NCBI GenBank assembly: GCA_021325635.1
Contig: JAJPGV010000007.1
Coordinates: 1-64,000 of the forward strand
Source of the DNA: Chloroflexota bacterium
GTDB taxonomy: Bacteria > Chloroflexota > JAJPGV01
Length of the DNA: 64,000 bases
Direction of reading: 5' to 3'
Shown: positions 13,944-44,439 of the stretch, one piece after another
Numbering within the stretch: position 1 is the first letter of the stretch
Layout: every line of letters begins with the position of its first letter
Made by a program: the position numbers and the translations under genes
Notes under the pieces: model-generated
Told to the model about the DNA's origin: nothing
Database searches by the model: none
The model's input: the letters and a program-made list of their open reading frames with translations, nothing else

Positions 13944-14390
13944 GTGCGAGCCCTGCTGCAGCGCGTGAGCGAGGCGTCGGTCGCCGTCGAGGGACGCTCG
14001 ACCGGCCGCATCGGCCAAGGACTGTGCATCCTGCTTGGAGTCGGCCCCGGCGACAGCCTGGACACGGCGAGGCTGCTCGCCAGGAAATGCGCCGAGCTGC
14101 GCATCTTCAACGATGAGCAGCGCAAGATGAACCGCTCACTGATAGAGGTCGGCCGCCAGGCGCTGGTCGTCTCGCAGTTCACGCTCTACGCCAATACGCG
14201 CCGTGGGCGCCGGCCAAGCTTCGTGGAGGCAGCACCGCCGGACGCCGCGGCGCCGCTGGTCGAAGCCTTCTCGGCCGCGCTGCGCCAGCTCGGCGTAACC
14301 GTGGAAACAGGCCAGTTCGGCGCAAGCATGCTGGTCGAGATACACAACGACGGCCCCGTCACCATCTGGCTGGACACAGACTCGCCGTGA
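13944..14390 (+). CDS. dtd: D-aminoacyl-tRNA deacylase
   Basis: 148 aa. Frees tRNA from wrongly attached D-amino acids (and glycine). The family signatures [17 protein letters not shown] (active-site region) and [14 protein letters not shown] (Gly-cisPro motif) are both present, and the [17 protein letters not shown] start is standard. Start codon GTG, 9 nt after the hydrolase stop, so it probably ends the same transcript. Confidence 0.96.
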
Positions 14391-14487: not shown

Positions 14488-14517
14488 TTGACGGCGGTAT
14501 CCAGCTTCCGCTAGGCT
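14488..14517 (+). promoter_or_regulatory. Probable sigma-70-type promoter of imuB-dnaE2
   Basis: TTGACG (14488-14493) is followed after 18 nt by TAGGCT (14512-14517). Transcription would begin near 14524, inside the palindrome that carries the SOS-type box. A repressor bound there would block the promoter. Confidence 0.5.
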
Positions 14518-14560
14518 TAAGGCCCTTATAGAACGCTTGTTCTATAAGGGCCTTAAGCCT
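14513..14560. promoter_or_regulatory. 48-bp perfect palindrome with GAAC-N4-GTTC SOS-type box (probable LexA operator)
   Basis: Left arm 14513-14534 and right arm 14539-14560 are exact 22-bp reverse complements around the 4-nt centre GCTT. The core GAACGCTTGTTC fits the Gram-positive LexA consensus GAAC-N4-GTTC. It sits between the promoter and the imuB ATG at 14563 and leaves no room for a normal ribosome binding site. LexA binding is an inference from the core, the gene content downstream and the lexA gene at 43725-44381. Confidence 0.75.
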
Positions 14561-14562
14561 GA

Positions 14563-15861
14563 ATGAAGGATGCTGCTTCTCCCCTGGGATCGCGGCGCTG
14601 GCCGGCGCAGACGCACACCGGCTGCGTGTGGCTGCCACAGCTGCAGTTGCGGGCGGAGATCCTGCGCCATCCGGCCTGGGATGGGCGGCCGGTCGTCATG
14701 AGCGGCGGGCCGAGGGAGCGGAAAACAGTGCAGCTGTGCTCGCCTGAGGCAGAGCTGGCCGGACTGCGGCCGGGGCTGCCGCTGCGCGAGGTGCTGCCGT
14801 TGTGTCCCGACGCAATCGTCCTGCAGCCCGACCCGGTGCGAACTGCGGCGGTGCTGGAAGACGTCCTGCGCCAGCTGCAGCTCGTCACTCCGCGAGTCGA
14901 GATGAGCCGGCCATTGTGGGTATCACCGGGAAAACGCGCGGCGCTGGGCGTATTCGCCGGGCAGGAGATGGCGTTCCTCGATCTGCGCGGCAGCGAGCAG
15001 GTGTACGAGCACAGCTTCGACGCGCTGGAGCAGGCGATTCACGCTGCCGTCCCCTGGCTGCTGCAGCCCAGGCTGGGGCTCGCCGGGGGGAAGTTCGCCG
15101 CCGCCGTAGCCGCCCAGACCGCGAGCCCCCGGAGCCGGCAGGTGGTTCCGGCCGTGGAGACGGCGGCGTTCCTGGATCCGCTGTCCATACGCTTCCTGCC
15201 GTTTGCCAGCGAAGCCATCGAACGGTTGGAGCTGCTTGGCATGCATACCATCGGCCAGCTTGGGGCACTCCCCTTCTCTGCAGTCCAGGCCCAATTCGGC
15301 CGCGCCGGAGCGCAGTCCTGGCGGCTGGCCCACGGCCAGGACGGCGAGCCCATCGCGGCCGAGTCTTACGTTCCAACGGTCCGAGCCGCGCTGCGCTGCG
15401 ACGATCCACCGAGCAGCGTCGAGGCCATCCTGGCAGCGCTGGATCAGCTCCTATCGAGAGCCTTCAGCCAGCCGGCCATGCGCGGATGCTCGGCCAGACA
15501 GGTCCGGCTGCGAGCGCTGCTGGCCGACGGGAGCTCATGGGAGCGATCGTTCACCTTCAAAGAGCCGCTCTCCGGCAAAGACGCCATGCGGCGGACGCTG
15601 TGGGGCAAGCTGAAGGCGGCCAACACGCTGCCACCGGCCCCGGTGGAAGAGCTGTACCTGGAGCTGCTGGGACGGGGGCCCGAAACAGCGCGCCAGCTGC
15701 CCCTGTTCGGCCACCGCCTGCGCCAGCGCAGGGATCTGGCCCAGGCGGCCCAACAGCTTGCCGCTCGCTACGGACACATGCCTTTATACCGTCCCGTGGA
15801 GGTCGAGCCATGGTCGCGCATTCCCGAGCAACGATGGGCGCTTACACCCTTCGACCCCTGA
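14563..15861 (+). CDS. imuB: ImuB-like Y-family polymerase homologue
   Basis: 432 aa. It resembles Y-family polymerases (CVWLPQLQLRAEILRHPAW at the start, LGLAGGKFAAAVAA, RLELLGMHTIGQLGALPF helix-hairpin-helix, then a little-finger region). The acidic catalytic residues are not evident: the first motif lacks Asp and the second reads EMAFLDLRG rather than SIDEAxLD. That is the hallmark of ImuB, which acts as an adaptor in translesion mutagenesis. A beta-clamp binding motif, QLPLF, is at 378-382. The dnaE2 gene overlaps its 3' end by 52 nt. ImuA, the usual third member, is absent. Confidence 0.85.
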   Translation: MKDAASPLGSRRWPAQTHTGCVWLPQLQLRAEILRHPAWDGRPVVMSGGPRERKTVQLCSPEAELAGLRPGLPLREVLPLCPDAIVLQPDPVRTAAVLEDVLRQLQLVTPRVEMSRPLWVSPGKRAALGVFAGQEMAFLDLRGSEQVYEHSFDALEQAIHAAVPWLLQPRLGLAGGKFAAAVAAQTASPRSRQVVPAVETAAFLDPLSIRFLPFASEAIERLELLGMHTIGQLGALPFSAVQAQFGRAGAQSWRLAHGQDGEPIAAESYVPTVRAALRCDDPPSSVEAILAALDQLLSRAFSQPAMRGCSARQVRLRALLADGSSWERSFTFKEPLSGKDAMRRTLWGKLKAANTLPPAPVEELYLELLGRGPETARQLPLFGHRLRQRRDLAQAAQQLAARYGHMPLYRPVEVEPWSRIPEQRWALTPFDP

Positions 15862-18800
15862 ACGTTGCCCAGCCCCTCGCCGTCAAAACCGGCCCGGCGG
15901 GCCAGCCCCTGGCCGTGCGACGAGCAGGCCGGCAGCGCTGGCGTGCCGTCCTGGAGGTACAGGATTGCTGGCGCATCGACGACGAGTGGTGGCGCGAACG
16001 GCCGGTCTCGCGGCTGTATCACTGCCTGCTGCTCGAGGATGGCGGGCGCCTGACGGTGTATCACGACCTGCTCTCCGGGAGCTGGCTCGAGCAGCGCGAG
16101 GCCAATAGCCCACGGTGGGGCAGCAGCGGCCAAGGAATTGCCCGAGAAGCCACGCTTCACGTCCAGTCCCAGCCTGCCAGTCAGACTTCGCTGTATCACG
16201 AGCTGCACCTGCATACCTGCTTCTCCTTTCTCGAAGGCGCCTCACAGCCCGAGGAGCTGATCGACCGCGCACATGAGCTGGGTTACCGATCCCTGGCCAT
16301 CACCGACCACGACGGCCTGCACGGGGCAATGCTGTTTGCCCAGTACGCCAGCAAGAAGGCCGGCATCCGGCCGGTCACCGGCGTCGAGCTCACGCTGCGG
16401 CACGGGCTGCTGGCCGGCCGGCAGAGGACACATCCCGAGCCCGAGGAGACGCACGAGAGAGTCCATCTCACCCTCCTGGCTGAAAACCGTGAGGGCTACG
16501 CCAACTTATGTCAAATCATTACGGAGGCGCACCGCACCAGCCCTCTCGGAGACGTGGCGCTGGATCCCGCGTTCCTGGAAGGGCACACCAGGGGCCTCAT
16601 CGCGCTGTCCGGCTGCCGCCAGGGCGAGATCGGCCAGCTCGTCGATCGCGGCCGGCACGACGATGCGCTGGCGGCCGCCCGGCTTCTCGCGCAGCTGTTC
16701 GGCGCTGCCAGCACCTACGTCGAGCTGCAGCACAACCGGGTACGCGGCGACACGGTTCGTGTGGCCCACCTGGTCCAGCTGGCCGAGGAGGCAGGTCTGG
16801 CGATAGTCGCCACCGGGAACGTGCACTATCACCTGCGGGAGCGGCACCGCCTGCAGGACGCCCTCGTGGCCATCAAGCAACGCGGCACGCTGGAGGGAAC
16901 CCATCAGCTGCGGCGGCCCAACAGCGAGTTCGCACTGCGCTCGCCGGAAGAGATGGCGAGCGTGTTCGCACGCTATCCCGAGGCCATCCGAAACACCGGG
17001 CTCATCAGTGAGCGCTGCTCCGAATTCCGTCTGGACGAGGAAGGCAGCCTGCACTACGGCTTTCCGGATTTCTTCCATAAGGACGGTGAACAGAACTGCT
17101 CCGACGACCAGGTGCTGGCCAACTACTGCTGGTCGAAGCTCGACGAGCGCTACGCGGCGCCGGACGACGAGCAGACGTGGGGACGGGTCAAACCACCGGG
17201 CTTCCGCAAGGAGACCCTGGCCGAGGCCAAGGCCGTGCGAGAACAGGCCAGGAAACAGCTACGGGAAGAGCTCGCCCTGGTCGCCAGCCACAAGATGTCC
17301 GGCTTTTTCCTGATCTATCGGGACCTCCAGGCGCTGGCCACCGAGGTAGCCGGCGAGCTGCGCAGCAGCGGCGATCCGCACGAGAACCGCCGCTCCCTGC
17401 CGCCAGGACGGGGCCGTGGATCCTCGGTCAGCTCGATCATCTGCTACCTCATCGGACTGTCCCACGTCGACCCGGTGCGCCACCGCCTGTTCTTCCGGCG
17501 CTTCCTGAACGAGGAGCTCCAGACCGTCCCGGACATCGACCTGGATTTCAGCCGCGAGATTCGCGAGCAGCTGATCCTGCGCGTCTACCAGCGCTACGGA
17601 CACGATCACGCCGCGCTGGTATGCAGCTTCGCGACCTATCACATCCGCAGCGCCATTCGCGATCTGGGCAAGGTGCTGGGGCTCCCGCTGCCGGCGCTGG
17701 ACAAGCTGGCCAAGCTGTCCGAGGGCGGCTCAGCCACAACCGTGAAGCTCGAGCTCGAGCGATTGCCGGAGTTCAGAGGGCAGGGAGACGGACCGCTGTG
17801 GCAGCATCTCATCGAGCTCGCGGCCCAGATAGACGGATTTCCGCGCCACGTCTCGCAGCACGTGGGCGGCATGATCATCTCCTCGCGGCCGCTGGTGGAG
17901 ATCGTCCCGGTGCAGCCCGCCAGCATGGAGGGGCGGTTCATCTGCCAGTGGGACAAGGACTCCTGCGACGATGCCCACTTCGCCAAGATCGACTTCCTGG
18001 CGCTGGGCATGCTGTCACTGGTCGAAGAATGCCTGGACATGATCGGCCGGAACCGGGGCGTCAAAGTGGACCTGACGTCGCTCGACTACGACGACCAGGC
18101 CATCTACGACGAGATCCAGGCCGGTGACACCATCGGCACCTTCCAGATCGAAAGCCGCGCGCAGATCCAGATGCTGCCGCGGACGCGGCCCGAGAACCTG
18201 GACGATCTCGCCGTCCAGGTGGCCATCGTTCGCCCCGGGCCGATCGTGGCCAACGCCGTGAACCCCTACGTCCGGCTGCGGGAGAAGCTGCGAGAAGCTG
18301 CTCAAGGAAGGGGCCAAACTCCCGCTCTCCGGACGATGGGCCACAGTCTGCCGGCCCCTTTGAGAGACGCGCTCGACGCCATCCTCCGGGAGACCCTGGG
18401 CGTGGTGATCTTCCAGGACCAGGTGCTGGAAATCGCCACGAGCGTGGCCGGATTCACGCCCGGCGAGGCGGACAGATTCCGGCGGACGATGAGCCGCCGG
18501 CGATCCAAAGAAGCCATGGAAGGCTTTCGCCAACGATTCATCGACGGCGCCGCGGCCAGAGGAGCGAGCCGGCAGGAAGCCAACTCCATCTTCGAGAAGC
18601 TCTCGGGGTTCTCGGACTTTGGCTTTCCCAAGAGCCATGCCTACGCGTTCGCGGTGCTGGCCTATCAGTCGGCTTGGCTGCGGCACTATTTCGGCCCGGA
18701 ATACTACGCCGCGCTGCTCAACAACCAGCCAATGGGCTTTTACGAGCCGAACGTCCTGATCGGCGACGCCAAGCGGCGCGCCATCAACGTCCTGCAGGTG

Positions 18801-19685
18801 TCAATCAATCGCAGTGGAGTGCGCTGCAAGCCGGGCAGCGAACAGCTCCTGCTCGGATTGAACCTGGTGCGAGACATGAGCGAGGAAGCAGCCGCGGCCA
18901 TCGTCCGCGAGCGCGAGCTGAACGGCCGCTACACGTCGCTGCCCGATTTCCTGCGGCGTATCAACATCCCGCGCCAGGTGGTGGAGCACCTGATCGCCAT
19001 TGGCGCGCTGGGCGAGTTCGGGCTGAGCCGGCGCGAGCTGCTGTGGCAGCTGGGACTGCTGCTGCCACAGTCGCCCTCGGCGCCAACGCTGCGGCCGCGC
19101 AAGAGCAGGCCTCAGCTGCCACTGGCGCTGCCGAACGAGCAGGACATGGTGAGCTTGAGCGATATGAGCGAGTGGGAACGGATGGTGGCCGACTACCAGG
19201 TGCTGCGTCTGTCTCCCAGCGCCCACCCCATGGGGCTGCTGCGCCAGGACATTCCGCGGGACGTCCTCCCGGCAAAGGAGCTGGAGGAGGTAGGGGACAG
19301 GGCACACGTCCGTACGGCCGGGATGGTCGTTTGCCGGCAGCGTCCGGGAACGGCAAAGGGCATCGTCTTTCTGCTGCTAGAAGATGAGACCGGCATCACC
19401 AACGTCGTGGTGCGCCCGGACCTCTACGAAGCCCAGCGCAGCCTGGTCCGCGGCGAGCCCTATCTGCTGGTCGAGGGAGAAGTCCAGATCCGATCCGGCA
19501 GCCTCAACCTTCTTGCCCAGAAGCTGTCCCCGCTGCTCGCCAAGCGGCCGCCGCGGCTCACGCTGCGACACGGCTACCCCGGCAATCCCAACGACATACG
19601 CGAGCATCCGGAGCTCTTCGTTGACGGATCGGCAAAGCCAGAAGCGCTCCACCGGATGGCCCCACCCAGCCATGATTTCCACTAG
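15810..19685 (+). CDS. dnaE2: Error-prone DNA polymerase DnaE2 with N-terminal DUF6504-like domain
   Basis: 1291 aa from an ATG with a GGAGG ribosome binding site 7 nt upstream; the open frame further upstream is a shadow of imuB. Residues about 1-95 (LAVRRAGRQRWRAVLEVQD, DDEWWRERPVSRLYHCLLLEDG) look like the small DUF6504 protein often found beside DinB or ImuB. The PHP domain starts near 129 (ELHLHTCFSFLEG). The polymerase palm has PDIDLDF at 574-580 and KIDF at 726-729, giving the three catalytic Asp residues. A helix-hairpin-helix and an OB-fold (VRTAGMVVCRQRPGTAKG) close the protein. It performs damage-induced mutagenic synthesis together with ImuB. Confidence 0.93.
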   Translation: MVAHSRATMGAYTLRPLNVAQPLAVKTGPAGQPLAVRRAGRQRWRAVLEVQDCWRIDDEWWRERPVSRLYHCLLLEDGGRLTVYHDLLSGSWLEQREANSPRWGSSGQGIAREATLHVQSQPASQTSLYHELHLHTCFSFLEGASQPEELIDRAHELGYRSLAITDHDGLHGAMLFAQYASKKAGIRPVTGVELTLRHGLLAGRQRTHPEPEETHERVHLTLLAENREGYANLCQIITEAHRTSPLGDVALDPAFLEGHTRGLIALSGCRQGEIGQLVDRGRHDDALAAARLLAQLFGAASTYVELQHNRVRGDTVRVAHLVQLAEEAGLAIVATGNVHYHLRERHRLQDALVAIKQRGTLEGTHQLRRPNSEFALRSPEEMASVFARYPEAIRNTGLISERCSEFRLDEEGSLHYGFPDFFHKDGEQNCSDDQVLANYCWSKLDERYAAPDDEQTWGRVKPPGFRKETLAEAKAVREQARKQLREELALVASHKMSGFFLIYRDLQALATEVAGELRSSGDPHENRRSLPPGRGRGSSVSSIICYLIGLSHVDPVRHRLFFRRFLNEELQTVPDIDLDFSREIREQLILRVYQRYGHDHAALVCSFATYHIRSAIRDLGKVLGLPLPALDKLAKLSEGGSATTVKLELERLPEFRGQGDGPLWQHLIELAAQIDGFPRHVSQHVGGMIISSRPLVEIVPVQPASMEGRFICQWDKDSCDDAHFAKIDFLALGMLSLVEECLDMIGRNRGVKVDLTSLDYDDQAIYDEIQAGDTIGTFQIESRAQIQMLPRTRPENLDDLAVQVAIVRPGPIVANAVNPYVRLREKLREAAQGRGQTPALRTMGHSLPAPLRDALDAILRETLGVVIFQDQVLEIATSVAGFTPGEADRFRRTMSRRRSKEAMEGFRQRFIDGAAARGASRQEANSIFEKLSGFSDFGFPKSHAYAFAVLAYQSAWLRHYFGPEYYAALLNNQPMGFYEPNVLIGDAKRRAINVLQVSINRSGVRCKPGSEQLLLGLNLVRDMSEEAAAAIVRERELNGRYTSLPDFLRRINIPRQVVEHLIAIGALGEFGLSRRELLWQLGLLLPQSPSAPTLRPRKSRPQLPLALPNEQDMVSLSDMSEWERMVADYQVLRLSPSAHPMGLLRQDIPRDVLPAKELEEVGDRAHVRTAGMVVCRQRPGTAKGIVFLLLEDETGITNVVVRPDLYEAQRSLVRGEPYLLVEGEVQIRSGSLNLLAQKLSPLLAKRPPRLTLRHGYPGNPNDIREHPELFVDGSAKPEALHRMAPPSHDFH

Positions 19686-43724: not shown

Positions 43725-44381
43725 CTACATCTTGCGCAGGACCGCCGAGACCTTACCCACCAGCCGAAAATCCGGATCACCCCGGCGGACGATGATGGGC
43801 TCCATAGTGTCGTTTTCCGGCTGCAGACGAACATGGCCGTTTTCGGGGTAATAGGTCTTGACCGTCGCCTCTTCGCCAAGCAGCGCAACGACGATCTCGC
43901 CGCGATTGGCCACGGGCTGCTGCCGCACGAACACGTAGTCGCCATCGAAGATGCCGGCGTTGACCATGCTCGTGCCCTTCACCTGGAGGGCAAATAGGTC
44001 CCCCTCGCGCACGAAGAACTTGTCGAGGTACAGGGTGTCCTCGATGTTCTCCTCGGCCAGGATAGGCGCTCCTGCCGCCACCCGGCCAATCAGCGGAACG
44101 GCCACAAGGTTAGGACGAGAGTCCGGTTCGGGCGGCGAGGCGACGGCATCGTCCCGACCGCCACGAATGACCTCTAGCCCTCGCGATAGCCGCGCCTCGC
44201 GCTTGAGATAGCCCTTGCTCTCGAGCACACGCAAATGGTCACGAATAGCATTGGTGGACGAGACGCCCATACGCTGGGCCATCTCCCGCAGCGTGGGCGG
44301 GCGGCCGTGCTGTTCGATCCAGCTCTGAACCGCCTCCAGGATTTCGCGCTGCTTGCCGGTGAGATCCTGTTTGTTCGGCAC
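43725..44381 (-). CDS. lexA: LexA repressor (SOS regulator)
   Basis: 218 aa from GTG, chosen for its strong ribosome binding site (GGAGGAG, 3 nt upstream) and normal family start MPNKQDLTGKQREILEAV. The N-terminal winged helix is TLREMAQRMGVSSTNAIRDHLRVLESKGYL. The self-cleavage site is Ala103-Gly104 (RVAAGAP). The Ser138 (KGTSM) and Lys175 (ATVK) catalytic dyad is intact. On DNA damage RecA filaments should trigger cleavage and de-repress SOS genes. The likely target in this window is the imuB-dnaE2 promoter at 14513-14560. Confidence 0.97.
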   Translation of the reverse strand: MPNKQDLTGKQREILEAVQSWIEQHGRPPTLREMAQRMGVSSTNAIRDHLRVLESKGYLKREARLSRGLEVIRGGRDDAVASPPEPDSRPNLVAVPLIGRVAAGAPILAEENIEDTLYLDKFFVREGDLFALQVKGTSMVNAGIFDGDYVFVRQQPVANRGEIVVALLGEEATVKTYYPENGHVRLQPENDTMEPIIVRRGDPDFRLVGKVSAVLRKM

Positions 44382-44396
44382 CTGCTCCTCCTTGCT

Positions 44397-44439
44397 TACT
44401 GCACAAGTGAGCATACTGCAAATTTGATCAGCCTGTCAA
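44397..44439 (-). promoter_or_regulatory. lexA promoter with direct repeats
   Basis: On the minus strand TTGACA (44434-44439) and TATGCT (44410-44415) are 18 nt apart, a good sigma-70 promoter. Transcription would begin about 22 nt before the GTG. Two copies of TGCAGTA (minus strand; 44414-44420 and 44397-44403) flank the -10 region with 17-nt spacing and could be an operator. No GAAC-N4-GTTC box is present here. Confidence 0.65.

What the first reader, a model, noticed from the sequence alone, without database searches (positions are those of the whole stretch)
14513..14560. 48-bp perfect palindrome with a GAAC-N4-GTTC core just before imuB
Two 22-bp arms match exactly around GCTT. The core fits the Gram-positive LexA box, and the palindrome overlaps the expected transcription start and ends 2 nt before the ATG. 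An operator this long is far beyond the usual 12-16 bp SOS box. It may bind several LexA dimers, or the transcript may hide the start codon in a stem. The lexA gene is in the same window.
Basis: partly seen in the sequence, partly recalled or inferred. Interest (0 to 1): 0.68.

Follow-up and report, generated by a model that had tools for sequence, protein, structure and literature searches.

The report
SOS operator inside a perfect palindrome
An ordinary DNA-damage switch (a LexA binding site) in front of a mutagenesis gene sits, in this one bacterium only, at the centre of an unusually long perfect DNA palindrome that probably arose by a copying error, and the repressor that most likely binds it is not the LexA encoded nearby but a second LexA elsewhere in the genome.

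Summary
Positions 14513-14560 are two perfect 22-bp arms around GCTT, single copy in the genome, ending 2 nt before the imuB ATG. The inner 16 bp (TAGAACGCTTGTTCTA) is very likely a real SOS box. The same 16-mer precedes imuB across Chloroflexota relatives and precedes their lexA. In this genome it occurs before uvrD, mutL, nurA, an integrase and a second lexA. The outer 16 bp per side has no counterpart: 0-4 bp of outward symmetry at 50 other SOS boxes against 16 here, and no further LexA half-sites. "Several LexA dimers" is therefore unsupported, and the ATG is not in the stem. The best account is a conserved LexA operator enlarged by a lineage-specific inverted duplication (template switch). 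It has a different recognition helix and no GAAC box. A second promoter motif (CTGCACA-N2-TGTGCAG) lies before it and before recA. The LexA on contig C23 is the orthologue of the relatives' LexA and carries the GAAC box. A possible extra effect is that the full hairpin forms only in read-through mRNA, where it would block translation start. That is predicted, not shown.

The parts
14513..14560 (.). 48-bp perfect palindrome (22-bp arms, GCTT spacer)
   Evidence: single copy in genome
14529..14544 (.). SOS box TAGAACGCTTGTTCTA (LexA operator)
   Evidence: one of 4 exact matches in the genome; PWM score 25.9; conserved before imuB and lexA in relatives
14513..14528 (.). left outer arm, lineage-specific extension without LexA half-site
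   Evidence: no outward symmetry beyond 4 bp at 50 other boxes; PWM negative
14545..14560 (.). right outer arm, lineage-specific extension without LexA half-site
14488..14493 (+). candidate -35 TTGACG of promoter P1
   Evidence: read from the sequence; below the threshold of the consensus scan, which found nothing
14512..14517 (+). candidate -10 TAGGCT of promoter P1 (18-nt spacer); predicted start about 14524
   Evidence: read from the sequence; inference
14542..14547 (+). TATAAG: place of the -10 in relatives, where the box ends GTTC-TATNNT; no -35 remains upstream here
   Evidence: comparison of promoters; inference
14563..15861 (+). imuB (Y-family polymerase-like, mutagenesis cassette)
   Evidence: Pfam IMS; 55-61% identical ImuB next to dnaE2 in relatives
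16191..19685 (+). dnaE2, error-prone DNA polymerase (coding start lies at or upstream of 16191)
   Evidence: NCBIfam PRK05672 error-prone DNA polymerase, above cut-off
13944..14390 (+). upstream gene dtd (D-aminoacyl-tRNA deacylase), possible source of read-through
   Evidence: NCBIfam TIGR00256; not syntenic in relatives
43725..44381 (-). second lexA: divergent paralogue, probably NOT the repressor of this operator
   Evidence: TIGR00498; helix SSTNAIRDHL and no GAAC box
44399..44414 (-). CTG-type box ATGCTCACTTGTGCAG at the promoter of the window lexA
   Evidence: 2 mismatches to the recA box CTGCACA-N2-TGTGCAG

Best explanation
The centre (14529-14544) is the operator through which LexA represses the imuB-dnaE2 mutagenesis cassette; DNA damage triggers LexA self-cleavage and frees the promoter. 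The LexA involved is most likely the one on contig C23, not the one in the window. The extra 16 bp on each side are a lineage-specific enlargement of the box's own symmetry. It was most likely made in one step by a replication template switch: the nascent strand folded back on the short palindrome of the box and copied one flank into the other. It adds no LexA sites. Shown by sequence: the box, its conservation, the absence of the extension elsewhere, and the two LexA types. Inferred: LexA binding, the promoter and start site, and the template-switch origin.
For: Box: four exact TAGAAC-N4-GTTCTA in 4.64 Mb and nine with one mismatch (at up to 3 mismatches the total is below the reversed control, so only near-exact matches are informative). 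Their neighbours include uvrD, mutL, nurA, an integrase and lexA. All four close relatives with sequence upstream of imuB (ImuB 55-61% identical) have the box there, three exactly; many other Chloroflexota do too. All five close relatives have it, with 0-2 mismatches, before their full-length lexA. Extension: outward symmetry 0-4 bp at 50 other distinct boxes, 16 here; outer arms score negative. Right LexA: C23 LexA is 45-56% identical to the LexA of close relatives (window LexA 37-43%) and has the box TAGGACGGATGTTCTA just upstream. Template switching makes perfect hairpins in one event (PMC8794818).
Against: There are no closer relatives, so the ancestral sequence just before the extension is not known, and the template switch cannot be reconstructed base by base. 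Perfect 22-bp identity could also be kept by selection. The -35 element that several relatives have 2-3 nt before the box is missing here, so the promoter differs from theirs and the regulation may too. No binding or expression data exist for this organism.
Confidence: 0.72

Rival explanations
1. Read-through insulator: the arms are functional in RNA. A transcript that starts upstream (for example in dtd) carries both arms, folds into a 23-bp stem next to the ATG and is not translated; the SOS-induced transcript starts inside the palindrome, lacks the left arm and is translated. This would tighten repression of a mutagenic polymerase.
For: Predicted mean unpaired probability of the 15 nt before the ATG: 0.07 in read-through RNA, 0.64 from P1, 0.67 from a start at 14554. 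With the left arm shuffled, read-through RNA gives 0.40 (sd 0.09), none of 200 at or below 0.05. Full stem z-score -6.4. dtd lies upstream on the same strand.
Against: No relative has it. No transcription start is mapped. Any long palindrome at this place would give the same prediction.
Confidence: 0.13
2. Extended operator for several LexA dimers or for LexA plus another dimeric regulator reading the outer arms (CTTAAG repeats 36 bp apart, centre to centre).
For: Perfect symmetry about the LexA box; LexA operators with several boxes exist in other organisms (abstract of PMC4551915).
Against: No LexA half-site in the arms; no other SOS promoter here or in relatives has the arms; the arm sequence is single copy, so a second regulator would have one site in the genome.
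Confidence: 0.06
3. The box is bound by the LexA encoded in the window.
For: It is a good LexA (TIGR00498) and lies 29 kb away.
Against: Its helix (STNAIRDHL) differs from that of LexAs preceded by TAGAAC boxes (STSVVDYNL, RSTSHVNYHL); its own promoter and recA have a CTG-type box, and same-helix homologues L264 and L265 have ACTGTGCAAACGTACAGTA.
Confidence: 0.07
4. Assembly or library artefact (snap-back chimera).
For: Draft genome in 63 contigs; reads not available.
Against: Short, centred exactly on a conserved operator, unique sequence and intact genes on both sides.
Confidence: 0.03

Closest known systems
LexA box of Firmicutes and Actinobacteria (GAAC-N4-GTTC; PMC3323433)
   Same: Core GAAC-N4-GTTC with flanking TA/TA, in front of a LexA-controlled gene
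   Different: Embedded in 16 further perfectly paired bases on each side
LexA-controlled imuA-imuB-dnaE2 mutagenesis cassette (PMC3323433, PMC3901139)
   Same: imuB followed by dnaE2, SOS box before imuB
   Different: No imuA in the stretch between dtd and imuB; operator enlarged
Two-LexA organisms with divergent motifs, e.g. Leptospira interrogans LexA1/LexA2 (PMC3789691); duplication with motif divergence (PMC8565304)
   Same: Two lexA genes with different helices and different boxes
   Different: Here recA and the window lexA carry one motif; imuB, uvrD, mutL and the other lexA carry another; inferred from sequence only
Template-switch-made perfect hairpins (PMC8794818)
   Same: Perfect reverse-complement copy flanking a short seed palindrome
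   Different: Seed is a repressor operator; ancestral sequence not available

Membership tests
LexA (SOS) operator, GAAC-N4-GTTC type | Conserved palindromic core GAAC-N4-GTTC | tested here: met
   Exact TAGAAC-N4-GTTCTA
LexA (SOS) operator, GAAC-N4-GTTC type | Conserved at the orthologous promoter in relatives | tested here: met
   Before imuB in 4 of 4 close relatives with upstream sequence and many distant ones
LexA (SOS) operator, GAAC-N4-GTTC type | Same box at other SOS genes including lexA | tested here: met
   C23 lexA, uvrD, mutL, nurA; not recA
LexA (SOS) operator, GAAC-N4-GTTC type | LexA binds and DNA damage derepresses | not testable with these tools
   Needs gel shift and expression data
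Multi-box LexA operator | Further LexA half-sites in the arms | tested here: not met
   Best PWM score in the arms about -13
Dispersed repeat or mobile element | More than one copy | tested here: not met
   Single copy at 3 mismatches; none in viral contigs
Intrinsic terminator | G+C-rich stem followed by a T-run | tested here: not met
   No T-run after either arm; scan does not report it
Template-switch hairpin | Perfect inverted copy absent from the ancestor | tested here: inconclusive
   Absent in all relatives, but none close enough to give the ancestral sequence

The most novel reading that the evidence does not exclude
The enlarged palindrome makes one element work twice: as LexA operator in DNA, and as an RNA stem that silences imuB only in read-through transcripts, so that the mutagenic polymerase genes are translated solely from the SOS promoter.
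Probability: 0.12. Interest if true: 0.6.

Novelty: new variant of a known kind. Interest (0 to 1): 0.42.

Why it matters
It shows a conserved repressor site turned into a long perfect palindrome in one lineage, a natural case for asking whether operator palindromes seed template-switch mutations and whether the result affects control of mutagenesis. The side result, two LexA proteins with apparently separate boxes and recA placed with the divergent one, makes a split SOS response in Chloroflexota directly testable, and it corrects which LexA to purify.

Tried and rejected
ImuB as a probe of genome contigs found nothing, so DnaE2 was used. The GAAC-N4-GTTC core alone is uninformative genome-wide. 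Viral contigs gave no copy. The sigma-70 scan found no promoter. Searches failed on coordinates or frames and were repeated; one search failed and was not repeated, so the genes behind the other CTG-type sites are not named by family. The first script for helices and boxes of LexA homologues (middle part) mis-framed most loci and was replaced. Terminator, dispersed repeat and multi-box operator were considered and rejected (see membership test). No synteny of dtd with imuB in relatives. Searches for papers on LexA in Chloroflexota gave no dedicated study in the library.

Full report
Observation. The 48-bp perfect palindrome exists at 14513-14560 as described. It is single copy in the 4.64 Mb draft genome at up to 3 mismatches and has no exact copy in the viral contig collection. 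In 1.66 Mb of the same genome only one perfect inverted repeat with spacer up to 20 is longer (26-bp arms), so long perfect hairpins are rare but not unique here. The imuB start codon lies 2 nt outside.

The core. The inner 16 bp, TAGAACGCTTGTTCTA, is the informative part. GAAC-N4-GTTC alone occurs 58 times, as often as its reversed control, but TAGAAC-N4-GTTCTA occurs exactly four times and nine times with one mismatch. Genes next to these sites include a phage-type integrase, a UvrD-type helicase, MutL, a NurA nuclease, a Schlafen/AlbA_2 protein and a second lexA. In Chloroflexota relatives found through DnaE2, the same box stands before imuB: CAGAACAAACGTTCTA in L069, TAGAACGCAAGTTCTA in L074, TAGAACAAATGTTCTA in L130, TAGAACAAAAGTTCTA in L133, and in many more distant genomes. 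All five close relatives also have it, with 0-2 mismatches, before their full-length lexA. That the core is an SOS operator is therefore close to certain by comparative evidence; binding itself is not shown.

The outer arms. Among 51 distinct boxes (13 from this genome, 38 from relatives), symmetry continues outward by 0-4 bp in 50 and by 16 bp in this one. Chance for 16 more pairs is about 1e-9. A PWM from relatives' boxes gives 25.9 for the core and about -13 or less anywhere in the arms, so the arms hold no extra LexA sites. In several relatives the box sits between -35 and -10, with GTTC-TATNNT giving the -10 and a TTGACA-like hexamer 2-3 nt before the box (sequences; reading of promoters is inference). 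In the window the right side keeps TATAAG at that place, while the left side has no -35 near the box; a TTGACG 35 nt before the box could pair with TAGGCT at the edge of the left arm (18-nt spacer). This pattern suggests, but does not prove, that the left arm was written by copying the right one, with the promoter shifting upstream. Template switching at short inverted repeats makes such perfect stems in one event (PMC8794818).

RNA. A transcript from the whole region folds into a stem with z-score -6.4; one starting at 14524 forms only the inner hairpin. The 15 nt before the ATG are predicted unpaired at 0.07 in read-through RNA, at 0.64 from 14524 and 0.67 from 14554, and at 0.40 in read-through RNA with the left arm shuffled. 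This is the most novel reading not excluded; there is no conservation to support it.

Which LexA. The genome has two full LexA proteins (domain matches; one search confirms both as TIGR00498). The C23 LexA is 45-56% identical to the LexA of the five close relatives and has TAGGACGGATGTTCTA immediately upstream. The window LexA is 37-43% identical to them and has no such box. The window lexA promoter and the recA promoter share TGTGCAGTAA. CTGCACA-N2-TGTGCAG matches exactly only at recA; two one-mismatch sites lie on C17 and C18, and the window lexA site has two mismatches. The recognition helix of the window LexA (SSTNAIRDHL) is nearly shared by L263-L265 (STNGVRDHL), of which L264 and L265 carry ACTGTGCAAACGTACAGTA at about the same distance from lexA; LexAs with helix SSTSVVDYNL mostly carry TAGAAC-type boxes, and SSSSTVHNHL ones often CGAAC-N4-GTTCG. 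In the close relatives recA has a GAAC-type box, and in two genomes with both LexA types recA still has GAAC-type half-sites. recA thus seems to have moved to the CTG-type LexA in this lineage. This resembles LexA duplication with motif divergence (PMC8565304; Leptospira, PMC3789691). It is an inference from sequence.

Verdict. The thing is a conserved LexA operator with a lineage-specific palindromic enlargement, most likely a mutational product.

Noticed in passing
43725-44414; G000:C23:121269-121895; G000:C10:6202-6217: Two LexA paralogues with apparently different boxes: a CTG-type (TACTGYACA-N2-TGTRCAGTA-like) at recA and the window lexA, and TAGAAC-N4-GTTCTA at imuB, uvrD, mutL and the C23 lexA. 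A possible split SOS regulon.
   Followed up: partly
L238:1501-1528, L239:1501-1528 (G000:C17:10256, G000:C18:11438): Two paralogous small ORFs (MKPLFVLHLRLEAIGVIPW..., MEPLYVLHLRLASIGVIPW...) each have a one-mismatch CTG-type box a few nt before the start.
   Followed up: partly
15834-16190: About 110 codons ahead of the DnaE2 PHP domain are open in the same frame as dnaE2; a small protein or an N-terminal extension between imuB and dnaE2.
   Followed up: no
L021, upstream of imuB (genome G038): Inverted pair of LexA half-sites CAAGTGTTCTATTACAATGATAGAACACTTG in opposite orientation to the usual box.
   Followed up: no
L212:9613-9667: Perfect inverted repeat with 26-bp arms at the junction of long ORFs; the longest found in the sampled 1.66 Mb.
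   Followed up: no
L074 and L069, upstream of imuB: An ATG lies 6-7 nt after the predicted -10 in both, which suggests leaderless or near-leaderless imuB mRNAs in relatives.
   Followed up: no
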